A stretch of DNA of 64,000 bases from Lachnospiraceae bacterium NE2001 (GTDB lineage: Bacteria; Bacillota; Clostridia; Lachnospirales; Lachnospiraceae), in NCBI GenBank assembly GCA_900110635.1, contig FOEK01000002.1, forward strand, positions 124,001 to 188,000, in the 5' to 3' direction. The notes under the pieces were generated by a model. The model did not search any database and was not told the origin of the DNA. It saw nothing but the letters and a program-made list of their open reading frames with translations. The stretch's first letter is position 1. Each line of letters starts with the position of its first letter. This document shows positions 24,023 to 32,954 of this stretch, in pieces. The translations under genes were made by a program, and so were the position numbers.

Positions 24023-25540
24023 ATGAGGTTAAATGAATTACTCCAGTTTAATGATATAGTTATCCAATGTCACGACAATCCCGATGCAGATGCACTCTCA
24101 TCGGGGTTTGCCCTTCATTGGTATCTTACAAAGATGGGAAAGAGCCCTCGCTTTATCTATCGCGGGCAGAATAAGATTAACAAGAGCAACCTGCTTATAA
24201 TGCTGGACCGTCTTGAGATTCCTGTTACCTACGAGCCGGATTTCGACGAAGTACCGGAGCTGCTTGTTACAGTGGACTGTCAGTATGGTCAGTCAAATGT
24301 TACAAGGACAGAGGCTCAGAATATAGCTACTATCGATCACCATCAGGTTACGGTTGAGCTCCCAGAGCTTTCAGAGGTGAGAAGCAATATCGGTAGCTGT
24401 GCTACGGTTATGTGGGATATGATACGTATGGAACGGGTGAGTGTTGATGAAAGTCCTGCACTTTCAACGGCCATGTATTATGGTCTTTATACCGATACCA
24501 ATAAGATGTCAGAAATATCCCATCCGCTGGACAGGGATATGAGAGATTCTCTGAACTTCATCAGAAGTGTCATAACAGAGATGAGCACCTCTAATATATC
24601 TCTTAATGAACTGAAGATAACCGGTAAGGCAATTCTGGATTATCAATATTTTATTAATCACAAATATCTTATGATCCAGGCTGATCAGTGCGACCCGATC
24701 ATCCTGGCTGTGATCAGTGATTTTTCAATGGAGACAACTGATGTAAATGTTTGTCTCTCATATTTCGTGACCCCTGAAGAAATACGTTTCTCCATAAGGA
24801 GCTGTGTGAAAGAGGTTCACGCAAACGAGCTGGCCAGATTTATCTCAGATGGTATAGGTGGCGGTGGTGGTCATATAACCAAGGCTGGCGGAGCAATTAG
24901 ACCAGAGAAGCTGATGCAACTTCCTGATTATGAGAATGCTTCAGTGGAAGATGCCATAAATGCTGAATTCCAGAAGAGGATTGATAAGTATTTTAATTCC
25001 TTTGAGATAATGTACGCAAAGGAAACTATTCTCGACACCAGTGATATGAAAAAATACGAGAAGCTTCCGCAGCTTTTAGGCTATGTGAAGTTGACGGATA
25101 TATTTCCCGAGAATACTATGGTGGAAATCAGAACCATGGAGGGAGATGTCAACATTCGTATAGATGATGAGAAATACCTTATGATCGGTATAGAGGGAGA
25201 AGTTTATCCTATCAAGAAGGAGAAGCTGGACAACAGCTACCGTCTGGTGGATATCCCGTATATGGGTGAGTTTGAGTACGAGCCCCGCATCAAGGATAGT
25301 GTTACCGGTGAAGAAAAAGGTGTTATAGCATTTGCAAGATCCATTATAGGAACGGGCAAGACCAGAATATATTCAAAGCCTCTTGATACATATATAAAGC
25401 TTTTCACCGAATGGGATGAGGACAAATATTATTCAGGTGTCCCAGGGGATTATATAGCAGTAAGAGAGGATGATCCCCACGATATCTACATAATAAATGG
25501 ACGACTCTTTGATCAGCTTTATAAGGAGGTTGAGGAGTAA
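24023..25540 (+). CDS. DHH/DHHA1 phosphoesterase with long C-terminal extension
   Basis: A 505-residue protein. The N-terminal DHH domain has CHDNPDADALSSGFAL and the IDHHQV motif; the DHHA1 domain has GGGGGHITKAGGA near residue 288. The pair is the core of NrnA-type nanoRNases and cyclic dinucleotide-related phosphodiesterases, which cut short RNA, pAp, pApA or pGpG with Mn ions. NrnA relatives are usually near 310-340 residues, so about 170 residues at the C terminus are extra; they end in a PGDYIAVREDDPHDIYII-like segment I cannot assign. The stop codon abuts the start of the TIR gene. Confidence 0.85.
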   Translation: MRLNELLQFNDIVIQCHDNPDADALSSGFALHWYLTKMGKSPRFIYRGQNKINKSNLLIMLDRLEIPVTYEPDFDEVPELLVTVDCQYGQSNVTRTEAQNIATIDHHQVTVELPELSEVRSNIGSCATVMWDMIRMERVSVDESPALSTAMYYGLYTDTNKMSEISHPLDRDMRDSLNFIRSVITEMSTSNISLNELKITGKAILDYQYFINHKYLMIQADQCDPIILAVISDFSMETTDVNVCLSYFVTPEEIRFSIRSCVKEVHANELARFISDGIGGGGGHITKAGGAIRPEKLMQLPDYENASVEDAINAEFQKRIDKYFNSFEIMYAKETILDTSDMKKYEKLPQLLGYVKLTDIFPENTMVEIRTMEGDVNIRIDDEKYLMIGIEGEVYPIKKEKLDNSYRLVDIPYMGEFEYEPRIKDSVTGEEKGVIAFARSIIGTGKTRIYSKPLDTYIKLFTEWDEDKYYSGVPGDYIAVREDDPHDIYIINGRLFDQLYKEVEE

Positions 25541-25541
25541 T

Positions 25542-28500
25542 ATGATAGATCATTATAATGCGTTTATCTCCTATAAGCATGCTCCGGAGGACACTCGTGT
25601 TGCTGAGGCAGTGCAGCGTGGTCTGGAGCATTTTCATATTCCTGCCAAGATTAAAAGCTCCACTGGAATGAAAAAGATAGACAGGATATTCAGGGATAAG
25701 GACGAACTTCCGATCACAAGTGATCTGAGCGAAACCATAGCAAATGCACTGGCCCACTCTGATTATCTGATAGTAATCTGTTCTACTAATACAAAGGAGT
25801 CAGCCTGGGTTCCCAGAGAGATAGAGTATTTCCTAAGATTCCATACAAAGAAAGATATATTTACAGTTCTGGTAAATGGCGAGCCTCAGGATGTTATTCC
25901 AGAGATGCTTCTTTACGAGGACCGTTATGTGCTGGATCAAAATGGTATGCAGCAGCGTGTCAGGATTCCAATAGAACCGCTTTCCTGCGACTTTAGAATG
26001 CCACTAAAAAAGGCGGAGAAGGTCGAGCTTCCTCGACTTGCCTGTGGTCTGATCGGATGCTCCTATGATGAACTGATGAATCGTCGCAGACAGTATAGAA
26101 TGAGACGTGTCATGCTGGCGACGGCGGCTGCCTTTTCTGTTAGTCTGGCATTCATTTCATACCTGCTTTACTCGAGACACGAGATAAATAAGAATTATCT
26201 GAGTTCACTTCGAAATCAATCAAAATATCTGGCAAATGAATCTGAGAATCTTCTGAATGACGAGCAGCGTATAACCGCACTTCAGCTGGTTCTTGAAGCA
26301 CTTCCCAAGGATGAAAACGATCCGAGACCTATTACGCCTGAGGCTATAAGTGCGCTTACGGAAGGTACCCTGGCGTATGAAACAAATGATGGCGTTAATA
26401 TCCACGCAACCTGGAACTATATAATGCCTAACTATATAGAGGATTTTAAGGTTTCTTCTGATTCTTCTACGATCACTATCCGAGATGCTGAAAATGTATT
26501 AGGTATATGGAGTACTAGAACCCACGAACAGATTCTTTATCTTGATAAAATTGGCGAAAAGATAAATGGAATGGAGTATCTCTCGGAGAAATCTCTTGTT
26601 TTCTGGACTGATAATAAGATAATCTGCTACGATACCATTTCAGGAAAAATGCTCTGGGAATATACTCTTAAAGAAGGAGCTTTTCTTCTTCAGGAAAATC
26701 TGACGGTGTCGGACAGCAGTCTGTTCATTGCAACCGAGGATTTAAGATTCATTGAGATTGATTCCTCAACGGGAGAGGCTAAAAATGAATATCATTTAGA
26801 TAAGAAAGATATTCAGGAGGATTTTTTATTATCTGAAGCAAAGCTTTCTCCAGATGGTACCAGAATAGCATTTCGTGGCAACGTTGGAGTTTTCGAATAT
26901 GTATATGGTGTAATGGATATTGATACTGGAGACGTCCGGATCTCGGATCCTATAGAAGAGTTCGTTAGACATATTGAGTGGATTGACGATACAAACCTTA
27001 TGGTGTCTCATATTTATGTTGATTTTAACGGAAGCATGTCTATTGGTGATCTTGATATCCTGTCGGAGGATCATAGTACTATTCTCTGCGTCGATCCTGC
27101 TACCCTGGAAGATAGATGGACTGCTGATTTTGCCTGTACTGGAGTAACCTTAAATGGAGGCTTCTTTAATCTGGCTAAAACAGGTTCGGTTGTATATTAT
27201 TCGGGAAATGTTGCCACCACCTATGACCTGGCAACAGGCGAAACTCTTTATGTCCATAATGTTAATAGCTCGATAATTGATGTAAGTGATAGGGATGGAG
27301 ATGGAAACCCACTCTATATTACTGAACACGGTGACTATACTTATCCTGCTTTAAATGTAAGCGATAGATCTGTATATAGCAAAAAATACTTTGCTGAGGA
27401 TCTGAGACAGGTTGTTGTAAATGAAGGCGTTTATGTGAGACAGTTTTTGGGTTATGAGGTCATCTATTATGGCGTTGGGGTTTATGATGATAATTGGAAA
27501 CCTCTTTCAGATGATATAGCGATAACAAGCTATTCTACAGATTATTATATGGGTGAAGATACGCTGGCTGTTCTTACCGAAGAAGACGATATACCAGTTC
27601 TTTCATTATTTGGACTTGGTGATAATAAAAAGTCGAGTCAGGTTAAGCTAAGTAAAGATGACTCATTTAGCCAGTATTCCATCTTAGGTATAAAAGACAA
27701 TAAAGTTCAGGTGGGACATCTGGAAAGCTCCAGATATGAATTAATAACTGTAGATATTTCAACTAGTGATATGGAGACGGAGGAAATAAGTAATAGTTAT
27801 GCATCCCTTATCAGCAGCCGTGTAGATGATTCCGGAAAGATGGTTTATGTGTTTAAGGATGATCATCTTAAATACAAACTGGGACTCTATGATCTTGAAA
27901 CTAAGAAAACAAACTCCATAGCGCTTCCTGAGGATGCTGGATATCCTACAAAAGCACCGCTCTATTTTAAGGATTCTAATTCGGTATATTTCTTTGGTGC
28001 TAAGGAGTACATTATTGATGTAAAGGAAGGTACTTCAGAAGAGGTTGATGTTCCTAGTCAGTGGATTGGAACAGACTGTATATCAGAAAATAGTAATGGC
28101 GAACTGATTGCATTATCTGATGGAAAGAGGATCATACTTCTGGACAAGGAAGGAAAGGTAATAGTTAAGATAGATTGTCCGGGAATAGCTCCTGTTGGGA
28201 TGTCATTCACCCCAAATGGAAAAGAATTACTTGTAGTTTACGGTGATGGAGGTCTGTATTGGTATTCTGTAGAAGGAATATTTAAGAAGAAATCCAGGGC
28301 TTCGGTCTATTATAATTCCACGGGTAAGGTTCATTTTGATTACGATACTGATAATGGCATCATATATATCCAGATGAGTATGCTTACGGATATGATAGAT
28401 ATGGATAGCGGAGTGGAGTTTACGCATATTGTAAATTGTTACGGTCATCACGATAAGACAGATACCTTTATTACGCAGTCGTATGATACGAAGAAAACAG

Positions 28501-28619
28501 TGAAGGTTGGTTATTATCCGCACTATACGGTGGATGAGCTCATCGATATGGCCCAGGAGATAACCGATGGAACCAAGCTCAGTGACGAGCTTAAATCACA
28601 GTATGGAATAGAGGATTAA
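25542..28619 (+). CDS. TIR domain - transmembrane helix - beta-propeller protein
   Basis: A 1025-residue protein. Residues about 1-150 form a TIR domain beginning YNAFISYKHAPEDTRVA, with W89xxxE93, the motif that carries the catalytic Glu of NAD-cleaving bacterial TIRs. A single membrane helix (about 191-211) follows, then a coiled segment and a long repeat region (about 265-990) of WD/PQQ-like strands that probably folds into propellers outside the membrane. I start at ATG 25542, one base after the DHH stop, with GAGGAG ahead; an upstream in-frame ATG at 25497 lies inside the DHH gene. TIR inside and propeller outside suggests a sensor with NADase or scaffold output. Biological role unknown. 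Confidence 0.8.
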   Translation: MIDHYNAFISYKHAPEDTRVAEAVQRGLEHFHIPAKIKSSTGMKKIDRIFRDKDELPITSDLSETIANALAHSDYLIVICSTNTKESAWVPREIEYFLRFHTKKDIFTVLVNGEPQDVIPEMLLYEDRYVLDQNGMQQRVRIPIEPLSCDFRMPLKKAEKVELPRLACGLIGCSYDELMNRRRQYRMRRVMLATAAAFSVSLAFISYLLYSRHEINKNYLSSLRNQSKYLANESENLLNDEQRITALQLVLEALPKDENDPRPITPEAISALTEGTLAYETNDGVNIHATWNYIMPNYIEDFKVSSDSSTITIRDAENVLGIWSTRTHEQILYLDKIGEKINGMEYLSEKSLVFWTDNKIICYDTISGKMLWEYTLKEGAFLLQENLTVSDSSLFIATEDLRFIEIDSSTGEAKNEYHLDKKDIQEDFLLSEAKLSPDGTRIAFRGNVGVFEYVYGVMDIDTGDVRISDPIEEFVRHIEWIDDTNLMVSHIYVDFNGSMSIGDLDILSEDHSTILCVDPATLEDRWTADFACTGVTLNGGFFNLAKTGSVVYYSGNVATTYDLATGETLYVHNVNSSIIDVSDRDGDGNPLYITEHGDYTYPALNVSDRSVYSKKYFAEDLRQVVVNEGVYVRQFLGYEVIYYGVGVYDDNWKPLSDDIAITSYSTDYYMGEDTLAVLTEEDDIPVLSLFGLGDNKKSSQVKLSKDDSFSQYSILGIKDNKVQVGHLESSRYELITVDISTSDMETEEISNSYASLISSRVDDSGKMVYVFKDDHLKYKLGLYDLETKKTNSIALPEDAGYPTKAPLYFKDSNSVYFFGAKEYIIDVKEGTSEEVDVPSQWIGTDCISENSNGELIALSDGKRIILLDKEGKVIVKIDCPGIAPVGMSFTPNGKELLVVYGDGGLYWYSVEGIFKKKSRASVYYNSTGKVHFDYDTDNGIIYIQMSMLTDMIDMDSGVEFTHIVNCYGHHDKTDTFITQSYDTKKTVKVGYYPHYTVDELIDMAQEITDGTKLSDELKSQYGIED

Positions 28620-28649
28620 AAAAAATTATTTGGTTATAGTAAAAACCTA

Positions 28650-28678
28650 TTGACTTACTAGGTGAATAATGTTAATAT
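28650..28678 (+). promoter_or_regulatory. SigA-type promoter of the mccBA leader
   Basis: TTGACT (28650-28655) and TAATAT (28673-28678) are separated by exactly 17 bp. ACCTA (28645-28649) and TAGGT (28659-28663) flank the -35 element as an inverted repeat. The expected transcript start is near 28685, about 30 bases before the small ORF. Confidence 0.75.
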
Positions 28679-28714
28679 GACACCGTTCAAAGATTTGGAA
28701 GAAGGAGACAGGCT

Positions 28715-28831
28715 ATGTCAAAGAATATAGTGAGCATAACTAAAAACTGTTGTTGCTGCTGTTCTATGTTAGATACCCGGACATATTATATGGCTGGTGT
28801 TTTGACGTGCCGATGTTGCTGTCTTAAGTAA
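28715..28831 (+). CDS. Cys-rich leader peptide, probable cysteine attenuator
   Basis: A 38-codon ORF with a good ribosome site (GAAGGAG at 28701-28707). It has nine cysteines: a run of five at residues 12-16 and four more at 32 and 34-36 (C-R-C-C-C), followed by Leu-Lys and TAA. Consecutive Cys codons just before a terminator and ahead of cysteine-forming enzymes are the mark of ribosome-mediated attenuation: low charged Cys-tRNA would stall the ribosome and favour read-through. CTGCTGTTC in the first Cys run (28756-28764) is perfectly complementary to GAACAGCAG (28844-28852) after the stop, and TGCTGT in the second run (28817-28822) can pair with part of the same segment. A free-standing metal-binding peptide is the alternative. 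Confidence 0.75.
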   Translation: MSKNIVSITKNCCCCCSMLDTRTYYMAGVLTCRCCCLK

Positions 28832-28890
28832 ACGCCAAACACTGAACAGCAGAGTGACTCATATGTCATAAACGAAGTTCGAAACCATAT

Positions 28891-28924
28891 GCCCGGGAGC
28901 TTTACAAAGCCTCCGGGCTTTTTG
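28891..28924 (+). terminator. Attenuator terminator ahead of mccB
   Basis: GCCCGGGAGC (28891-28900) pairs with GCCTCCGGGC (28909-28918) with one wobble and one mismatch, followed by T5. It lies 60 bases after the leader ORF and upstream of mccB, so it must be read through for mccBA expression from the leader promoter. Confidence 0.8.
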
Positions 28925-28925
28925 A

Positions 28926-28976
28926 TGCAGTGGGGTCCGTCCCCACTGCACGGGGGTCTGTCCCCAACTGCACATT
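28926..28976. repeat. Dispersed palindromic element, copy 1
   Basis: Perfect 10-bp arms TGCAGTGGGG / CCCCACTGCA with a 5-base loop, followed by a second GGGG...CCCC pair and CTGCACATTTT. Related copies are at 53656-53684 and 63701-63757. Read as protein it gives a false N-terminal extension of mccB. Confidence 0.8.
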
Positions 28977-29001
28977 TTATAAAAAAAAGGAGATTAGAAA
29001 G

Positions 29002-30156
29002 ATGTCAATTAAGTTAGATTCATTAGTAATTCATGGTGGTATAGATGGTGATGAGAGAACAGGTGCTGTAAATGTACCTATCTATCAGACCTCAACATAT
29101 AAGCAGGATGGTCTGGGTGAGAACAGAGGCTGGGAGTATTCAAGAACTGGCAACCCTACAAGAGCAGCGCTTGAAAAGCTGATAGCTGACCTGGAAGGTG
29201 GAGAGTATGGACTTGCATTTGCCTCAGGTCTTGCAGCCATCAACACAGTTCTTTCACTTTTCAAGGAAGGTGACAGACTCATTGTCTCAGACAATATCTA
29301 TGGTGGTACCTTCCGTATTCTTGATAATGTCTTCAAGAATTTTGGAATCACATATACGATCGTTAATACTTCAAATCTGGATGAGGTTGAAGCAGAGCTT
29401 AAGGGCGATAATGCAGATGAAATCAAGGCTGTATATATCGAGAGCCCAGCCAACCCACTTCTTACAGTAACAGATATCGAGAAGGTATCAGAGCTTGCAA
29501 AGATCTATAACAAGAAGATTATTGTAGATAATACCTTCCTTACCCCATATCTTCAGAGACCACTTTCACTTGGTGCAGATATCGTGATCCATAGCGGAAC
29601 CAAGTATCTAGGTGGTCACAGCGACACAGTATCAGGCTTTGTTGTTGTAAATGATAAGGAGATTGCTGACAGACTTTACTATCTGCAGAACGCTATCGGT
29701 GGTGTTCTCGGTCCTTGGGACAGCTACCTTATGATCCGTGGTATCAAGACGCTTGCAGTAAGAATGGATAGACATGTGGCAAATGCTATCAAGATCGCTG
29801 AGTGGCTCGAAAAGAGCGGTTATGTTGAAAAGGTTTACTATCCGGGACTTAAGTCGGATCCTGGCTATGAGGTACAGAAGAAGCAGGCCGATGGCCCTGG
29901 AGCTATGATCTCATTTACCCTTAAAAAAGAGTACGACTATAAGAAGTTCTTCAAGTCACTGAAACTCGTTACATTGGCAGAAAGCCTTGGTGGTGTGGAG
30001 TCACTTGTATGCCATCCTGCATCCATGACACACGCAGCAATCCCTAAGGATATCCGCGAGGCAGTTGGAATCACAGACGAGCTGATCCGTCTTTCAGTTG
30101 GTATCGAGGATGTAGACGACATCATCTCTGATCTGGAGCAGGCAATCAATGCATAA
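29002..30156 (+). CDS. mccB: Cystathionine gamma-lyase / gamma-synthase family PLP enzyme
   Basis: A 384-residue Cys/Met-metabolism PLP enzyme. PLP-binding Lys201 lies in SGTKYLGGHSD, with SRTGNPTR, ASGLAAI and the C-terminal SLGGVESL / RLSVGIEDVDDI motifs. Sequence alone does not separate cystathionine gamma-lyase, gamma-synthase and homocysteine gamma-lyase. The MccA-like gene 54 bp downstream makes the lyase of reverse transsulfuration (cystathionine to cysteine and 2-oxobutyrate) most likely. I start at ATG 29002 after AAAGGAG; an earlier in-frame ATG at 28930 falls inside the palindromic repeat. Expression is probably set by the Cys-codon attenuator upstream. Confidence 0.8.
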   Translation: MSIKLDSLVIHGGIDGDERTGAVNVPIYQTSTYKQDGLGENRGWEYSRTGNPTRAALEKLIADLEGGEYGLAFASGLAAINTVLSLFKEGDRLIVSDNIYGGTFRILDNVFKNFGITYTIVNTSNLDEVEAELKGDNADEIKAVYIESPANPLLTVTDIEKVSELAKIYNKKIIVDNTFLTPYLQRPLSLGADIVIHSGTKYLGGHSDTVSGFVVVNDKEIADRLYYLQNAIGGVLGPWDSYLMIRGIKTLAVRMDRHVANAIKIAEWLEKSGYVEKVYYPGLKSDPGYEVQKKQADGPGAMISFTLKKEYDYKKFFKSLKLVTLAESLGGVESLVCHPASMTHAAIPKDIREAVGITDELIRLSVGIEDVDDIISDLEQAINA

Positions 30157-30210: not shown

Positions 30211-31119
30211 ATGGAAGTTTTTAATAGTGTTCAGGAAATGATCGGTAACACTCCGATAATGAAGATAAATCATATGGGCGTTAAGCCCGGTGTTAATCTA
30301 TATGTTAAGCTGGAGCTTATGAATCCGGCTGGCAGCGTAAAGGACAGAGTTGGTGTATATATGATAGAGGATGCGGAGCGTAGAGGCATCCTTAGTCCTG
30401 GTGGTACAATAGTTGAGGCCACTGCCGGAAATACTGGAATAGGCATAGCTGTAGCAGCGCTCAACAAAGGATATAAGATTATATTTGCAGTTCCTGAGAA
30501 GTTCTCACTTGAGAAGCAGCGTGTTATGGCAGCTCTGGGAGCAGAGATTGTTCATACTCCTAGAGAGGAGGGAATGCTGGGTGCAGATAGAAAAGCCGAT
30601 GAGATAATCGCTTCAATCCCAGGGGCTATCTCAATGAAGCAGTTCAAGAATCCAGCCAACCCACAGGCTCACTATGAGACAACAGGTCCAGAGATATTTA
30701 AGCAGCTGGATGGACATATAGATTACCTTGTGGCAGGAGCCGGAAGCGGCGGTACATTTTCAGGTGTTGTTAAGTACCTCAAGGAGCAGAATCCTGGAAT
30801 TAAAGGTGTTCTTGCAGATCCTATTGGTTCGATCATTGGCGGTGGCGAGCACGCAGATTATGATATAGAGGGAATTGGAAATGACTTTATTGCTGATACC
30901 ATGGATGTATCCCTAGTAGATAAGGTCATCAAGATTACAGATGAAAATGCATTTACCACTGCACGAGAGCTTGCAAAAACAGAAGGAATACTGGCTGGTT
31001 CATCATCAGGTGCAGCCCTCTATGCAGCTCTTAAGCTGGCAGAAGAGATTGACACAGGAAATATAGTTGCTATACTTCCAGATAGGGGTGACCGCTATAT
31101 TAGCAAGGGACTCTTCTAG
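30211..31119 (+). CDS. mccA: Cystathionine beta-synthase / O-acetylserine-thiol-lyase family PLP enzyme
   Basis: A 302-residue fold type II PLP enzyme. Lys44 in NPAGSVKDR binds PLP, TAGNTGIG binds the substrate carboxylate, and GSGGTFSG binds the phosphate. The PEKFSLEKQ motif is like that of cystathionine beta-synthase/MccA proteins rather than the PETMS-type of ordinary CysK. With mccB just upstream, the likely role is condensing homocysteine with (O-acetyl)serine to cystathionine as the first step of methionine-to-cysteine conversion. Cysteine synthase activity cannot be excluded. Confidence 0.75.
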   Translation: MEVFNSVQEMIGNTPIMKINHMGVKPGVNLYVKLELMNPAGSVKDRVGVYMIEDAERRGILSPGGTIVEATAGNTGIGIAVAALNKGYKIIFAVPEKFSLEKQRVMAALGAEIVHTPREEGMLGADRKADEIIASIPGAISMKQFKNPANPQAHYETTGPEIFKQLDGHIDYLVAGAGSGGTFSGVVKYLKEQNPGIKGVLADPIGSIIGGGEHADYDIEGIGNDFIADTMDVSLVDKVIKITDENAFTTARELAKTEGILAGSSSGAALYAALKLAEEIDTGNIVAILPDRGDRYISKGLF

Positions 31120-31146: not shown

Positions 31147-32058
31147 ATGACTTTAAATCAATTGAAATATGTAATAGAGATATCAAAGCAGAACTCTATA
31201 AATGAAGCGGCCAAGAGTCTCTTTATATCGCAGCCAAGTCTTACTGCAGCTCTGAAATCCCTGGAGCAGGAGGTGGGTTTTGATATATTTACCAGAACCA
31301 ACAGTGGTATTACTCTCACTGTAAAGGGTGAAGAGTTTCTTGGATACGCAAAGTCCGTAGTGGAGCAGTATGACATCCTGGATGCAAAGTATATCTCAAA
31401 GAGCAATGTGAAGAGAACCTTCCAGGTATCTATGCAGCATTATACCTTTGCACTAAATGCATTTATAAATGTTATCAAGCAGTATGGCATGGATGAGTAT
31501 GAGTTCGAGGTTCATGAGACCAGAACCTATGATGTTATAGACAATGTAAGGAGTCAGAAGAGTGAAATCGGCGTGCTCTATATGAATGACTACAACAGAA
31601 CTGTTCTGGAGAAGATTCTAAGAGATGCAGGACTTAAGTTCACGCCTCTTTTTGACTGCAGCATTTATGCATATATGAGTAAGAGCAATCCTCTTGCAAA
31701 CAAGAAGTATGTAACTATGAAGGATCTGGATGATTATCCTTGTGTTGCATTTTCTCAGGGCGAGCATAACTCCTTCTACTTCGCAGAGGAGGTAATGAGC
31801 ACCTATGAGTATAAGCGTCTAATCAGGGTAAGCGATAGAGCCACCATACTGAATATGATGGTGGGTCTTAACGGCTACACCCTCTGCTCAGGCATTATCT
31901 GCGAGGACCTTAATGGTACAGATTACTGTGCAGTTAAGCTTAAGACCAAGGAGAAGATGACCATCGGTTATATCTCACGTAAGCATTCCAAGATAAGTGA
32001 AATGGGTCAGAAGTACGTAGAGGAATTAAGCAAGTATAAAGAGATGGTTCTGGATTAG
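31147..32058 (+). CDS. LysR family transcriptional regulator
   Basis: A 303-residue LysR regulator with an N-terminal winged helix (MTLNQLKYVIEISKQNSINEAAKSLFISQPSLTAALKSLEQEVG) and a periplasmic-binding-like effector domain. It lies 27 bp after mccA in the same direction, so it is probably cotranscribed and controls sulfur amino acid genes. It is closely related to the convergent LysR gene ending 5 bp away. CTATAAC-type motifs in nearby promoters are candidate operators. Confidence 0.85.
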   Translation: MTLNQLKYVIEISKQNSINEAAKSLFISQPSLTAALKSLEQEVGFDIFTRTNSGITLTVKGEEFLGYAKSVVEQYDILDAKYISKSNVKRTFQVSMQHYTFALNAFINVIKQYGMDEYEFEVHETRTYDVIDNVRSQKSEIGVLYMNDYNRTVLEKILRDAGLKFTPLFDCSIYAYMSKSNPLANKKYVTMKDLDDYPCVAFSQGEHNSFYFAEEVMSTYEYKRLIRVSDRATILNMMVGLNGYTLCSGIICEDLNGTDYCAVKLKTKEKMTIGYISRKHSKISEMGQKYVEELSKYKEMVLD

Positions 32059-32063
32059 CCTAT

Positions 32064-32954
32064 TTAATTCTTGAGAAGATTGATATACTCAAGAGTAAGT
32101 GTGGATGGGCGTATAGCTTTTGGAAGTATATAGCCTACCTCCATATAGTCATTCACCTTCAGCGGGCGGGCAACTATGTTTGGACCGTTCAGTTCTTCAC
32201 TGATGATACCGCTGCAGATAGTATATCCGTCCATACCTATCAGCATATTGAAGAGTGTAGCTCTGTCCCGGACAATTATCTCTTTGTCACAGTCCACAGT
32301 ACTGAGAATCTCTTCAGAAAAGTAAAATGAATTATGACTGCCCTGCTCGTAGGAAAGACGAGGGTAGGGTTTCAGGTCCTCCAGAGTGAGGGCCTTTTTC
32401 TTTGCCAGAGGAGAACTGCGTCCGATGAAGACGTGGGGCTTTACCTTAAAAAGAGAAGTGAAGCTTAGGTTATTATCTCTTAGTGTTTTCTGTATGATGG
32501 TCTCATTGAATTCATTTAAGTATAGAATACCTATTTCACTTCTAAGTTGTGATACATCTCGGATGATGTCATAGGTCTCAGTTTCTCTCATATGGAACTC
32601 ATACTTGTCACCGCCGTACATCTTAAGCAGCTTTACAAATGCTTCTACAACAAATGAGTAGTGCTGGGAGGATACAGAGAATCTGTGCTTTCCGGTGGTG
32701 CTGCCGGTATATCTCTCATTTATTAGGTTTGTCTGCTCCAGAACCTGTCTTGCATACCCCAGGAATTCCTCTCCATCCTGGGTGATCTCAATTCCCTTCT
32801 TAGATCTGTTGAAGATTGTAATGTCATATTCTTTTTCCAGCTCCTGAATTGAGGCGGTAAGACTGGGCTGTGCAATGTAGAGCCTGCGTGCAGCTTCAGT
32901 GATATTTTCTGTGTCAGCAACTGTTACTACATAATTTAACTGTTTTAATGTCAT
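32064..32954 (-). CDS. LysR family transcriptional regulator, divergent from metE
   Basis: A 296-residue LysR regulator (MTLKQLNYVVTVADTENITEAARRLYIAQPSLTASIQELEKEYD at the N terminus), paralogous to the gene at 31147. It is transcribed divergently from metE, the usual arrangement for a MetR-like activator of methionine synthesis. Tandem CTATAAC / CTATAAT motifs at 32967-32980 overlap its own ribosome site, suggesting autoregulation. The effector is unknown; homocysteine or O-acetylserine are known effectors of similar regulators. Confidence 0.85.
   Translation of the reverse strand: MTLKQLNYVVTVADTENITEAARRLYIAQPSLTASIQELEKEYDITIFNRSKKGIEITQDGEEFLGYARQVLEQTNLINERYTGSTTGKHRFSVSSQHYSFVVEAFVKLLKMYGGDKYEFHMRETETYDIIRDVSQLRSEIGILYLNEFNETIIQKTLRDNNLSFTSLFKVKPHVFIGRSSPLAKKKALTLEDLKPYPRLSYEQGSHNSFYFSEEILSTVDCDKEIIVRDRATLFNMLIGMDGYTICSGIISEELNGPNIVARPLKVNDYMEVGYILPKAIRPSTLTLEYINLLKN

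What the first reader, a model, noticed from the sequence alone, without database searches (positions are those of the whole stretch)
28650..29001. Poly-cysteine leader ORF and terminator ahead of mccBA: a probable ribosome-mediated cysteine attenuator
A promoter, a 38-codon ORF with a good ribosome site, five consecutive Cys codons plus a C-R-C-C-C cluster, and an intrinsic terminator precede the genes for making cysteine from homocysteine. CTGCTGTTC in the first Cys run (28756-28764) is perfectly complementary to GAACAGCAG (28844-28852) downstream of the ORF, and the second Cys run competes for the same segment, so ribosome position could switch the folds. I did not find an obvious strand that directly opens the terminator stem. 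Poly-Cys leader ORFs are described in mycobacteria; Firmicutes usually use T-boxes or repressors for these genes, so this looks new for the group.
Basis: partly seen in the sequence, partly recalled or inferred. Interest (0 to 1): 0.85.

Follow-up and report, generated by a model that had tools for sequence, protein, structure and literature searches.

The report
Cysteine-codon attenuator before cysteine genes
Ahead of its cysteine-making genes this relative of rumen bacteria carries a tiny gene full of cysteine codons that seems to act as a ribosome-read gauge of cysteine supply, and related bacteria carry the same device before several other sulfur genes, in a bacterial group better known for sensing amino acids with RNA switches that bind tRNA.

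Summary
In detail: a 38-codon ORF with ribosome site, five consecutive Cys codons and an intrinsic terminator precede the mccB-cysK-type operon. A Cys-cluster ORF lies within 450 nt upstream of close mccB orthologues in 19 of 23 regions (antisense 0, shuffles mean 0.16). The candidate switch is an antiterminator: leader RNA just after the Cys run (28776-28786) with the terminator's 5' arm (28887-28897). Three unrelated sequence versions keep it in nearly the same place, and it covaries in 73 aligned leaders, though alone it is weak in the window (P 0.152). Modelled ribosomes up to the last Cys codon leave it free (about 0.8); one to five codons later it falls to 0.23, then partly returns. A covariance model matches 30 of 250 genomes of the family and 36 of 61 of the genus (E<=1e-3), mostly before metY, mccB and transporters. 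No Rfam family matches. I read it as a Cys-tRNA-responsive attenuator regulon. Not shown: transcription, translation, cysteine response, and how a finished leader enforces termination.

The parts
28645..28663 (+). palindrome ACCTATTGACTTACTAGGT, putative operator (Rrf2/CymR type) overlapping the -35 region
   Evidence: CCTAY..RTAGG in 72 of 117 leader upstream regions, expected 0.2 (the window's own copy reads CTAGG and is not among the 72); same palindrome before metY of this genome, beside a divergent Rrf2 gene
28650..28678 (+). promoter-like TTGACT-17-TAATAT with extended TG
   Evidence: not above chance as a single match
28702..28707 (+). ribosome-binding site AAGGAG
28715..28831 (+). 38-codon leader ORF MSKNIVSITKNCCCCCSMLDTRTYYMAGVLTCRCCCLK
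   Evidence: no Pfam or NCBIfam match
28748..28762 (+). first Cys cluster, five TGY control codons
   Evidence: kept in relatives while flanking residues change
28776..28786 (+). segment 2, antiterminator strand CCCGGACAUAU
   Evidence: pairs with 28887-28897, one mismatch; P 0.152 in the window alone; supported by the family
28777..28797 (+). hairpin 2:2' (CCGGACAUAUUAUAUGGCUGG), may protect segment 2
   Evidence: no covariation excess of its own in 15 rows
28790..28794 (+). AUGGC, in the family also pairs with GCCAU before the terminator (antiterminator helix B)
   Evidence: in the window the partner is ACCAU, part of which helix A also uses
28808..28822 (+). second Cys cluster TGC CGA TGT TGC TGT, with the conserved CGATGTT at 28811-28817
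28885..28897 (+). segment 3: CCAUAUGCCCGGG, partner of segment 2; its 3' part is the 5' arm of the terminator
28891..28923 (+). intrinsic terminator, stem 28891-28918 and U-tract 28919-28923, dG -17.0
29002..30156 (+). mccB-type PLP enzyme (Cys_Met_Meta_PP), first gene of the operon
   Evidence: below the curated cut-off of each NCBIfam equivalog shown
30211..31119 (+). mccA/cysK-type PLP synthase (PALP; over the TIGR01136 cysKM subfamily cut-off)

Best explanation
It is a ribosome-mediated transcription attenuator that senses cysteine through charged tRNA-Cys. RNA polymerase makes the leader and a ribosome translates the Cys-rich ORF. When Cys-tRNA is short the ribosome stalls on the first Cys cluster. 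The RNA just ahead of it (segment 2, with AUGGC behind it) is free and pairs with the 5' arm of the terminator as soon as that arm is made, so polymerase reads into mccB-cysK. When Cys-tRNA is plentiful the ribosome runs over segment 2; segment 2 then folds on its own partner (2:2'), or in other versions on other leader RNA, the terminator forms and transcription stops. Shown by sequence and comparison: ORF, Cys codons, terminator, antiterminator, its covariation and its narrow range of places after the Cys codons. Inferred: transcription, translation, stalling, the tRNA signal, and the step by which the finishing ribosome favours the terminator. In relatives the same element stands before metY, amino-acid and MetQ-type transporters, and most leaders also carry a promoter palindrome likely to bind an Rrf2/CymR-type repressor.
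For: Cys-cluster ORF in 19 of 23 upstream regions against 0.16 expected. Terminator in 19 of 19 genus leaders and 15 of 15 further ones. Segment 2 starts 12-19 nt after the last Cys codon in 16 of 19 and 4-6 nt in three near-identical ones; 5-18 nt in 15 of 15. Pairing beats dinucleotide shuffles at P<=0.03 in 14 of 19 and 11 of 15. Three unrelated versions, each binding its own terminator arm more strongly on average than arms of other types do. Covariation on 73 rows: helix A 48 double-change cells against 27.6 shuffled, 0 of 500; helix B 20 against 6.5, 0 of 500, all five pairs; double changes stay above shuffles on 56 rows not used for the model (0 of 1000 for both helices). Ribosome scan over 77 leaders: 0.77-0.80 before the last Cys, 0.72 at it, 0.59, 0.37, 0.28, 0.26, 0.23 one to five codons after it. 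Targets: of 88 model hits read, 41 metY, 14 mccB, 13 amino-acid ABC binding proteins, 6 MetQ-type. Cys is 12.4% of the residues of the leaders chosen and 0.21% of the downstream ORFs.
Against: In the window itself the pairing alone is weak (P 0.152), as in L069, L070, L074 and L075. Equilibrium folding of the full leader favours the terminator at nearly every ribosome position, L070 excepted, so the switch must be kinetic. For the model family, before the second terminator arm is made, the antiterminator is as likely in ribosome-free RNA (0.79) and, if pairing across the ribosome is allowed, with a ribosome at the stop codon (0.80) as with a stalled one (0.72). In the ribosome scan the value rises again to about 0.5 some 10-14 codons after the Cys cluster, then falls to about 0.3; the four type iii leaders show no fall because their ORF ends at the Cys run. 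On the 15-row alignment two of five measures are no better than shuffles (pairs with double change 128 of 500, pair types 353 of 500). On non-training rows the percentage paired of helix A is not above shuffles (154 of 1000). The 2:2' hairpin alone showed no covariation excess. No shuffle control was run for the terminators. Three of 23 regions show no leader (L082, L086, L088), and none of 17 fetched regions with more distant mccB (64% identity or less) has a Cys-cluster ORF directly before it by the same screen. No expression data.
Confidence: 0.86

Rival explanations
1. Arrest-peptide sensor: the nascent peptide (with M-C-C-R-M) stalls the ribosome in response to free cysteine or another thiol, as TnaC does for tryptophan, rather than the ribosome waiting for Cys-tRNA.
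For: CCRM and SRA..MAG recur across diverged leaders; CGA codons flank the Cys codons.
Against: SRA..MAG falls on RNA pairing segments. Types ii and iii lack the CCRM motif yet keep a Cys run and the antiterminator. Starvation genes need stalling when cysteine is low, the opposite of a ligand-induced stall (inference).
Confidence: 0.06
2. The short ORF encodes a working small Cys-rich protein (metal or redox) and its place before mccB is incidental, with an ordinary terminator between.
For: It has a ribosome site and recurs in relatives.
Against: The peptides differ almost wholly outside the Cys run between types; the leaders have terminators whose 5' arm matches leader RNA after the Cys run; much of the conserved residue pattern maps to RNA pairing segments.
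Confidence: 0.03
3. Repressor control alone: an Rrf2/CymR-type protein at the promoter palindrome does the regulation and the leader is a relic.
For: Palindrome before 72 of 117 leaders; in this genome metY has the palindrome but no Cys leader, beside a divergent Rrf2 gene.
Against: A relic would not keep covarying antiterminators and Cys codons across the family. 45 of 117 leaders lack the palindrome by the strict pattern, though some, such as the window's, have a near match.
Confidence: 0.05

Closest known systems
Cys-run leaders of Mycobacterium, Propionibacterium acnes and Bifidobacterium longum cbs (PMC1262725, passages); mycobacterial polycysteine ORFs (Canestrari 2020, seen only as a reference entry)
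   Same: Runs of Cys codons in a short ORF before cysteine genes.
   Different: In those leaders terminators were missing and Rho was proposed (PMC1262725); the mycobacterial ORFs are leaderless by the title of Canestrari 2020. Here there is a Shine-Dalgarno site, an intrinsic terminator and a covarying antiterminator.
uORFC-8-2 motif (PMC8632094, passages)
   Same: uORF with tandem Cys codons, stem and intrinsic terminator; proposed ribosome-mediated attenuation.
   Different: Found exclusively before cysS of Rhodobacterales, two tandem Cys codons, no antiterminator named in the passage. Here: Lachnospiraceae and relatives, before metY, mccB and transporters.
Cys T-box of clostridial ubiGmccBA (PMC2940859, passages)
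   Same: Same operon type; signal there is tRNA-Cys charging, outcome premature termination.
   Different: A T-box binds tRNA directly (recalled); no Rfam family matches here.
His leader peptides of hisS/hisZ in bacilli (PMC2965389, passages)
   Same: Leader-peptide attenuators that stand in for T-boxes in Firmicutes.
   Different: Histidine, bacilli; no relation tested.
Leucine-rich attenuator peptide of Staphylococcus aureus (PMC5794164, title and start of abstract in a search listing)
   Same: An amino-acid attenuator peptide in a Firmicute.
   Different: Branched-chain amino acids; paper not read.
E. coli trp attenuator (recalled)
   Same: Control codons, terminator, antiterminator.
   Different: In the trp leader the stop codon lies close to segment 2; here, in type i leaders, the stop lies about 45-75 nt after the start of segment 2.

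Membership tests
ribosome-mediated (leader-peptide) transcription attenuator | short ORF with ribosome site before the operon | tested here: met
   ORF and AAGGAG present, similar ORFs in relatives; actual translation not shown
ribosome-mediated (leader-peptide) transcription attenuator | control codons for the amino acid that the downstream genes supply | tested here: met
   Cys 12.4% of leader residues against 0.21% downstream; mostly sulfur amino acid genes downstream
ribosome-mediated (leader-peptide) transcription attenuator | intrinsic terminator before the first gene | tested here: met
   19 of 19 and 15 of 15, no shuffle control
ribosome-mediated (leader-peptide) transcription attenuator | antiterminator that excludes the terminator | tested here: met
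   weak in the window taken alone
ribosome-mediated (leader-peptide) transcription attenuator | structure that removes the antiterminator strand when translation is complete | tested here: inconclusive
   All ten type ii/iii leaders: in ribosome-free RNA the terminator arm is held upstream with a chance of only 0.01-0.33. Model family: 2:2' hairpin pairs well but equilibrium does not favour it
ribosome-mediated (leader-peptide) transcription attenuator | read-through responds to charging of the cognate tRNA | not testable with these tools
   needs reporters
T-box riboswitch (RF00230) | matches the T-box covariance model | tested here: not met
   no Rfam match in 28600-29050 at E<=1; the same genome has five T-box matches elsewhere, one over the cut-off
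mycobacterial leaderless polycysteine ORFs | leaderless start, no intrinsic terminator | tested here: not met
   ribosome site and terminator present; the transcript start is not mapped
uORFC-8-2 motif | sequence/structure match to that motif, cysS target | not tested
   its model was not at hand; no cysS was noted among the downstream genes read, eight of which stayed unclassified
CymR/Rrf2 operator | palindrome at the promoter of cysteine genes with an Rrf2 regulator in the genome | tested here: met
   agreement with a published CymR motif was not obtained
CymR/Rrf2 operator | bound by the regulator in response to cysteine | not testable with these tools
   needs binding assays

The most novel reading that the evidence does not exclude
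A new, family-wide class of cysteine attenuator in which the ribosome works as a movable wedge: rare CGA codons placed beside the Cys codons slow it first at the Cys cluster and again at CGA-TGT near the stop, so that a stalled ribosome leaves both antiterminator strands on the same side, while a ribosome that has moved to the end of the leader stands between them until the terminator has formed. CGA makes up 116 of 137 Arg codons beside Cys codons in leaders, against 32 of 968 in the downstream genes.
Probability: 0.3. Interest if true: 0.85.

Novelty: new variant of a known kind. Interest (0 to 1): 0.74.

Why it matters
Firmicutes are usually credited with T-boxes and proteins for amino-acid control (recalled; PMC2965389, passages, calls histidine leaders in bacilli the first regular leader peptides there, and a leucine-rich attenuator peptide is reported in S. 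aureus, PMC5794164, listing only). A cysteine leader regulon across Lachnospiraceae, on the very operon that some clostridia put under a Cys T-box, would show one sensing system replacing another while keeping the signal. It also names a set of small ORFs in rumen bacteria (the one tested matches no Pfam or NCBIfam family) as likely regulators, explains much of their conserved pattern by RNA pairing, and offers a clean test of how ribosome position and rare codons set the decision.

Tried and rejected
Equilibrium folding of the complete leader as proof of switching was rejected: it favours the terminator nearly everywhere. A blind scan of alignment A2 for further paired regions, such as a partner for CGATGTT, gave nothing convincing, but it was insensitive: it did not list the known helices either. 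Helix B came from reading the consensus and was then counted. The pattern of five Cys codons was followed in 30 fetched loci: 24 lay inside longer ORFs of another frame, three were mccB leaders, three were neither; the rest of that capped list was not examined. Candidates L150 and L156 were dropped (no ribosome site; poor hairpin, or duplex far from the Cys codons); near copies L148, L206 and one of L159 were not analysed. L293 and L294 (E 0.003-0.004) have no credible leader and are probably chance hits; the ORFs that the script chose for L250, L255 and L302 are also doubtful. Own-genome metY was checked for a leader: none seen, and no model match. CymR's published motif was sought in passages of three papers and two listings without obtaining the letters. 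Literature: ten searches, and term searches within PMC8632094, PMC1262725, PMC13236596, PMC2940859, PMC2965389, PMC11109978, PMC8040213 and PMC6429828, showed no cysteine leader in Lachnospiraceae; no paper was read whole, no supplements were seen, and most subscription papers are not in that library.

Full report
WHAT IS THERE. The window lies in a 3.72 Mb, 62-contig genome. Its closest named relative in this operon is Lachnospiraceae bacterium AC2031 (MccB 98% identical; lineage). The leader ORF, ribosome site, Cys clusters and terminator are as described. Downstream are an mccB-type enzyme of the Cys/Met PLP family, a cysK/mccA-type enzyme, two LysR genes and metE. The leader peptide matches no Pfam or NCBIfam family and the region no Rfam family.

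IS IT MORE THAN CHANCE. MccB was sought in 146 relatives (72 with a match at E<=1e-60), and 40 regions were fetched. With the window, 23 regions lie before close mccB orthologues (79% identity or more) with upstream DNA. In 19 of these 23 a Cys-cluster ORF lies within 450 nt on the sense strand; none on the other strand; 100 dinucleotide shuffles gave a mean of 0.16 and a maximum of 2. Missing were L082, L086, L087 and L088; in L082 and L088 mccB directly follows a metY-like gene. The covariance model later found a leader before mccB in the L087 genome, making 20 of 23. Of the other 18 regions, one (L102) has no DNA upstream of mccB and 17 hold more distant mccB (64% or less); none of these has a Cys-cluster ORF directly before mccB by that screen. 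Outside the Cys run the peptides differ strongly between types, and the Cys codons mix TGT and TGC (84 and 42).

THE SWITCH. All 19 genus leaders have a terminator between leader and mccB (dG -11.6 to -21.6; no shuffle control). In each, RNA after the Cys run can pair with the terminator's 5' arm. There are three unrelated versions: CCCGGACAUAU with AUAUGCCCGGG (type i, window), CAUUCUUCGC with GCGAGGAAUG (type ii), CUUGUUUCGU with ACGAAGCAAG (type iii), and two leaders outside these types. The best duplex starts 12-19 nt after the last Cys codon in 16 of 19 leaders and 4-6 nt in three near-identical ones; 14 of 19 beat shuffles at P<=0.03; the window does not (0.152), nor do L069, L070, L074 and L075. 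Leader RNA of another type binds an arm more weakly on average, with single exceptions. Seventeen more candidates were analysed; two were dropped as not leaders; of the other 15, some near copies of each other, all have a terminator, segment 2 starts 5-18 nt after the Cys cluster, and 11 reach P<=0.03. On a tree of 30 MccB proteins (10 of 27 inner branches well supported) type i stands both in the window's clade and in a second clade, type ii in one clade plus L075, and type iii in one clade that also holds L085 (types labelled by eye). So the pairing seems to have been rebuilt with other letters at about the same place.

COVARIATION. Fifteen type i leaders were aligned (A1). The antiterminator pairs in 72.2% of cells (0 of 500 shuffles reach it), with 18 double-change cells against 11.0 (5 of 500) and a covariation score reached by 2 of 500; the number of pairs with a double change (7 of 13; 128 of 500) and of pair types (353 of 500) is not above shuffles; slid registers give 24-49%. 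A covariance model (R1) was built from A1 with the terminator and the 2:2' hairpin only. On 73 distinct matches (A2) the antiterminator, which the model did not contain, pairs in 81.7% of cells with 48 double-change cells against 27.6 (both 0 of 500). A second helix, AUGGC with GCCAU, pairs in 86.3%, with double changes in all five pairs (20 cells against 6.5, 0 of 500). On the 56 rows that are not training rows or near copies, helix B stays above all 1000 shuffles on both measures; helix A stays above on double changes (0 of 1000) but not on percentage paired (154 of 1000 reach it); with a 75% identity filter (47 rows) the figures for helix A are 6 and 29 of 1000. Terminator and 2:2' hairpin together have 7 of 14 pairs with double changes (0 of 500), but A2 was fitted to that structure; the 2:2' hairpin alone showed no excess on A1. 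The recurring peptide stretches SRA..MAG and NSILRMF fall on these pairing segments, which explains them in large part (inference).

RIBOSOME POSITION. Before the second terminator arm is made, the chance that the first arm is held by upstream RNA is 0.77-0.80 while the A site lies before the last Cys codon of the first cluster, 0.72 at it, and 0.59, 0.37, 0.28, 0.26, 0.23 one to five codons later; it then rises to about 0.5 at 10-14 codons and falls to about 0.3 (77 leaders scanned, 11 skipped). Among the 19 genus leaders 15 show a fall after the Cys run, a modest one in the window (about 0.6 to 0.3-0.4); the four type iii leaders end at the Cys run and show none. Against a simple story: the complete leader at equilibrium favours the terminator nearly everywhere, L070 excepted, and in the model family ribosome-free RNA (0.79) or a ribosome at the stop codon with pairing across it allowed (0.80) leave the antiterminator as likely as a stalled ribosome does (0.72). 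If pairing across the ribosome is excluded, late positions give about 0.3. In all ten type ii and iii leaders the arm is held with a chance of only 0.01-0.33 in ribosome-free RNA, a more classical design; in type iii the competing partner looks, by eye, like leader codons before the Cys run. How completion of the leader favours the terminator in the main family is inference: a fast 2:2' trap, or the ribosome standing between the strands.

SPREAD AND TARGETS. R1 matches at E<=0.1 in 44 of 250 family genomes (249 genera) and in 37 of 61 genus genomes (stricter filters); at E<=1e-3, counted from the tables and including the window's genome, in 30 of 250 and 36 of 61. A few of the weakest (L254, L255) have no convincing leader. 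Adding eight genus genomes with only type ii, iii or other leaders, 44 of 61 species have at least one Cys leader. At E<=0.01 it matches 12 of 196 genomes sampled from the order and 11 of 245 from the class, each count including the window's genome; the others belong to other families, and two class hits (L293, L294) look like chance. I read 88 hits: 59 of the 104 distinct matches (those given as loci, among them the window and leaders already known), three second hits in named loci, and all 26 new ones. The next gene is metY in 41, mccB in 14, an amino-acid ABC binding protein in 13, MetQ-type in 6, PepT-like in 1, a cysK fragment in 1, other in 8 and none found in 4. A cystine substrate for the binding proteins is possible but rests on weak family scores of a truncated query. 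Among the others are a 3-sulfopropanediol dehydratase relative and a methyltransferase. Twenty such loci gave no Rfam match but one tRNA.

SECOND LAYER. CCTAY-N4..9-RTAGG stands before 72 of 117 leaders (0.2 expected, maximum 2 in 50 shuffles; spacer 7 in 69 of 72); a few loci are counted twice under two ids. In this genome metY has two copies of CCTA..TAGG upstream, no Cys leader, and a divergent Rrf2 gene. That this is a CymR-type operator is inference.

A CODON SIGNATURE. Of 137 Arg codons beside Cys codons in the leaders, 116 are CGA; in the downstream genes CGA is 32 of 968. Two cautions: the leaders are related, and R1 itself rewards CGA, so its hits are partly selected for it. But CGATGTT is invariant in the 15 rows of A1, which were chosen by Cys clusters. 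No RNA partner was found, by an insensitive scan. A pace-setting role for a rare codon is a guess.

KNOWN AND NEW. Cys-run leaders are predicted in mycobacteria, P. acnes and B. longum, without terminators (PMC1262725, passages), and before cysS in Rhodobacterales (PMC8632094, passages). In some clostridia the same operon has a Cys T-box (PMC2940859, passages). Leader peptides in Firmicutes were reported for hisS in bacilli (PMC2965389, passages) and for branched-chain amino acids in S. aureus (PMC5794164, listing). My ten searches found no cysteine leader in Lachnospiraceae, in a library that lacks most subscription papers. This genome has T-box matches at other genes. I call it a new variant of a known kind.

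Noticed in passing
28926-28978: A GGGGTCCGTCCCC-type repeat between terminator and mccB; the query region has 47 further matches in this genome, all to this part.
   Followed up: no
25497-28619: 1040-aa protein with an N-terminal TIR/ThsB-like domain and beta-propeller repeats just upstream.
   Followed up: no
28811-28817 and leaders in general: Rare Arg codon CGA flanks Cys codons (116 of 137 Arg codons beside Cys against 32 of 968 in downstream genes, partly selected by the model); CGATGTT invariant in 15 of 15 aligned leaders. Unexplained.
   Followed up: partly
L147, L155, L160, L167, L181, L185: Many leaders end in Arg-Cys-stop; function unknown.
   Followed up: partly
L219 4145-4549 and the metY promoter: This genome's metY-cysK operon has the promoter palindrome but no Cys leader seen, and a divergent Rrf2 regulator.
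   Followed up: partly
L251: A Cys leader hit before a relative of 3-sulfopropanediol dehydratase, a sulfonate-using glycyl radical enzyme.
   Followed up: no
31147-32058 and 32064-32954: Two LysR regulators between the cysteine operon and metE, converging tail to tail.
   Followed up: no
L063, 254 nt before mccB (match start): In a more distant relative a short ORF with C-C-M-C and further Cys residues precedes mccB; it was not caught by the CCC screen and not analysed.
   Followed up: no
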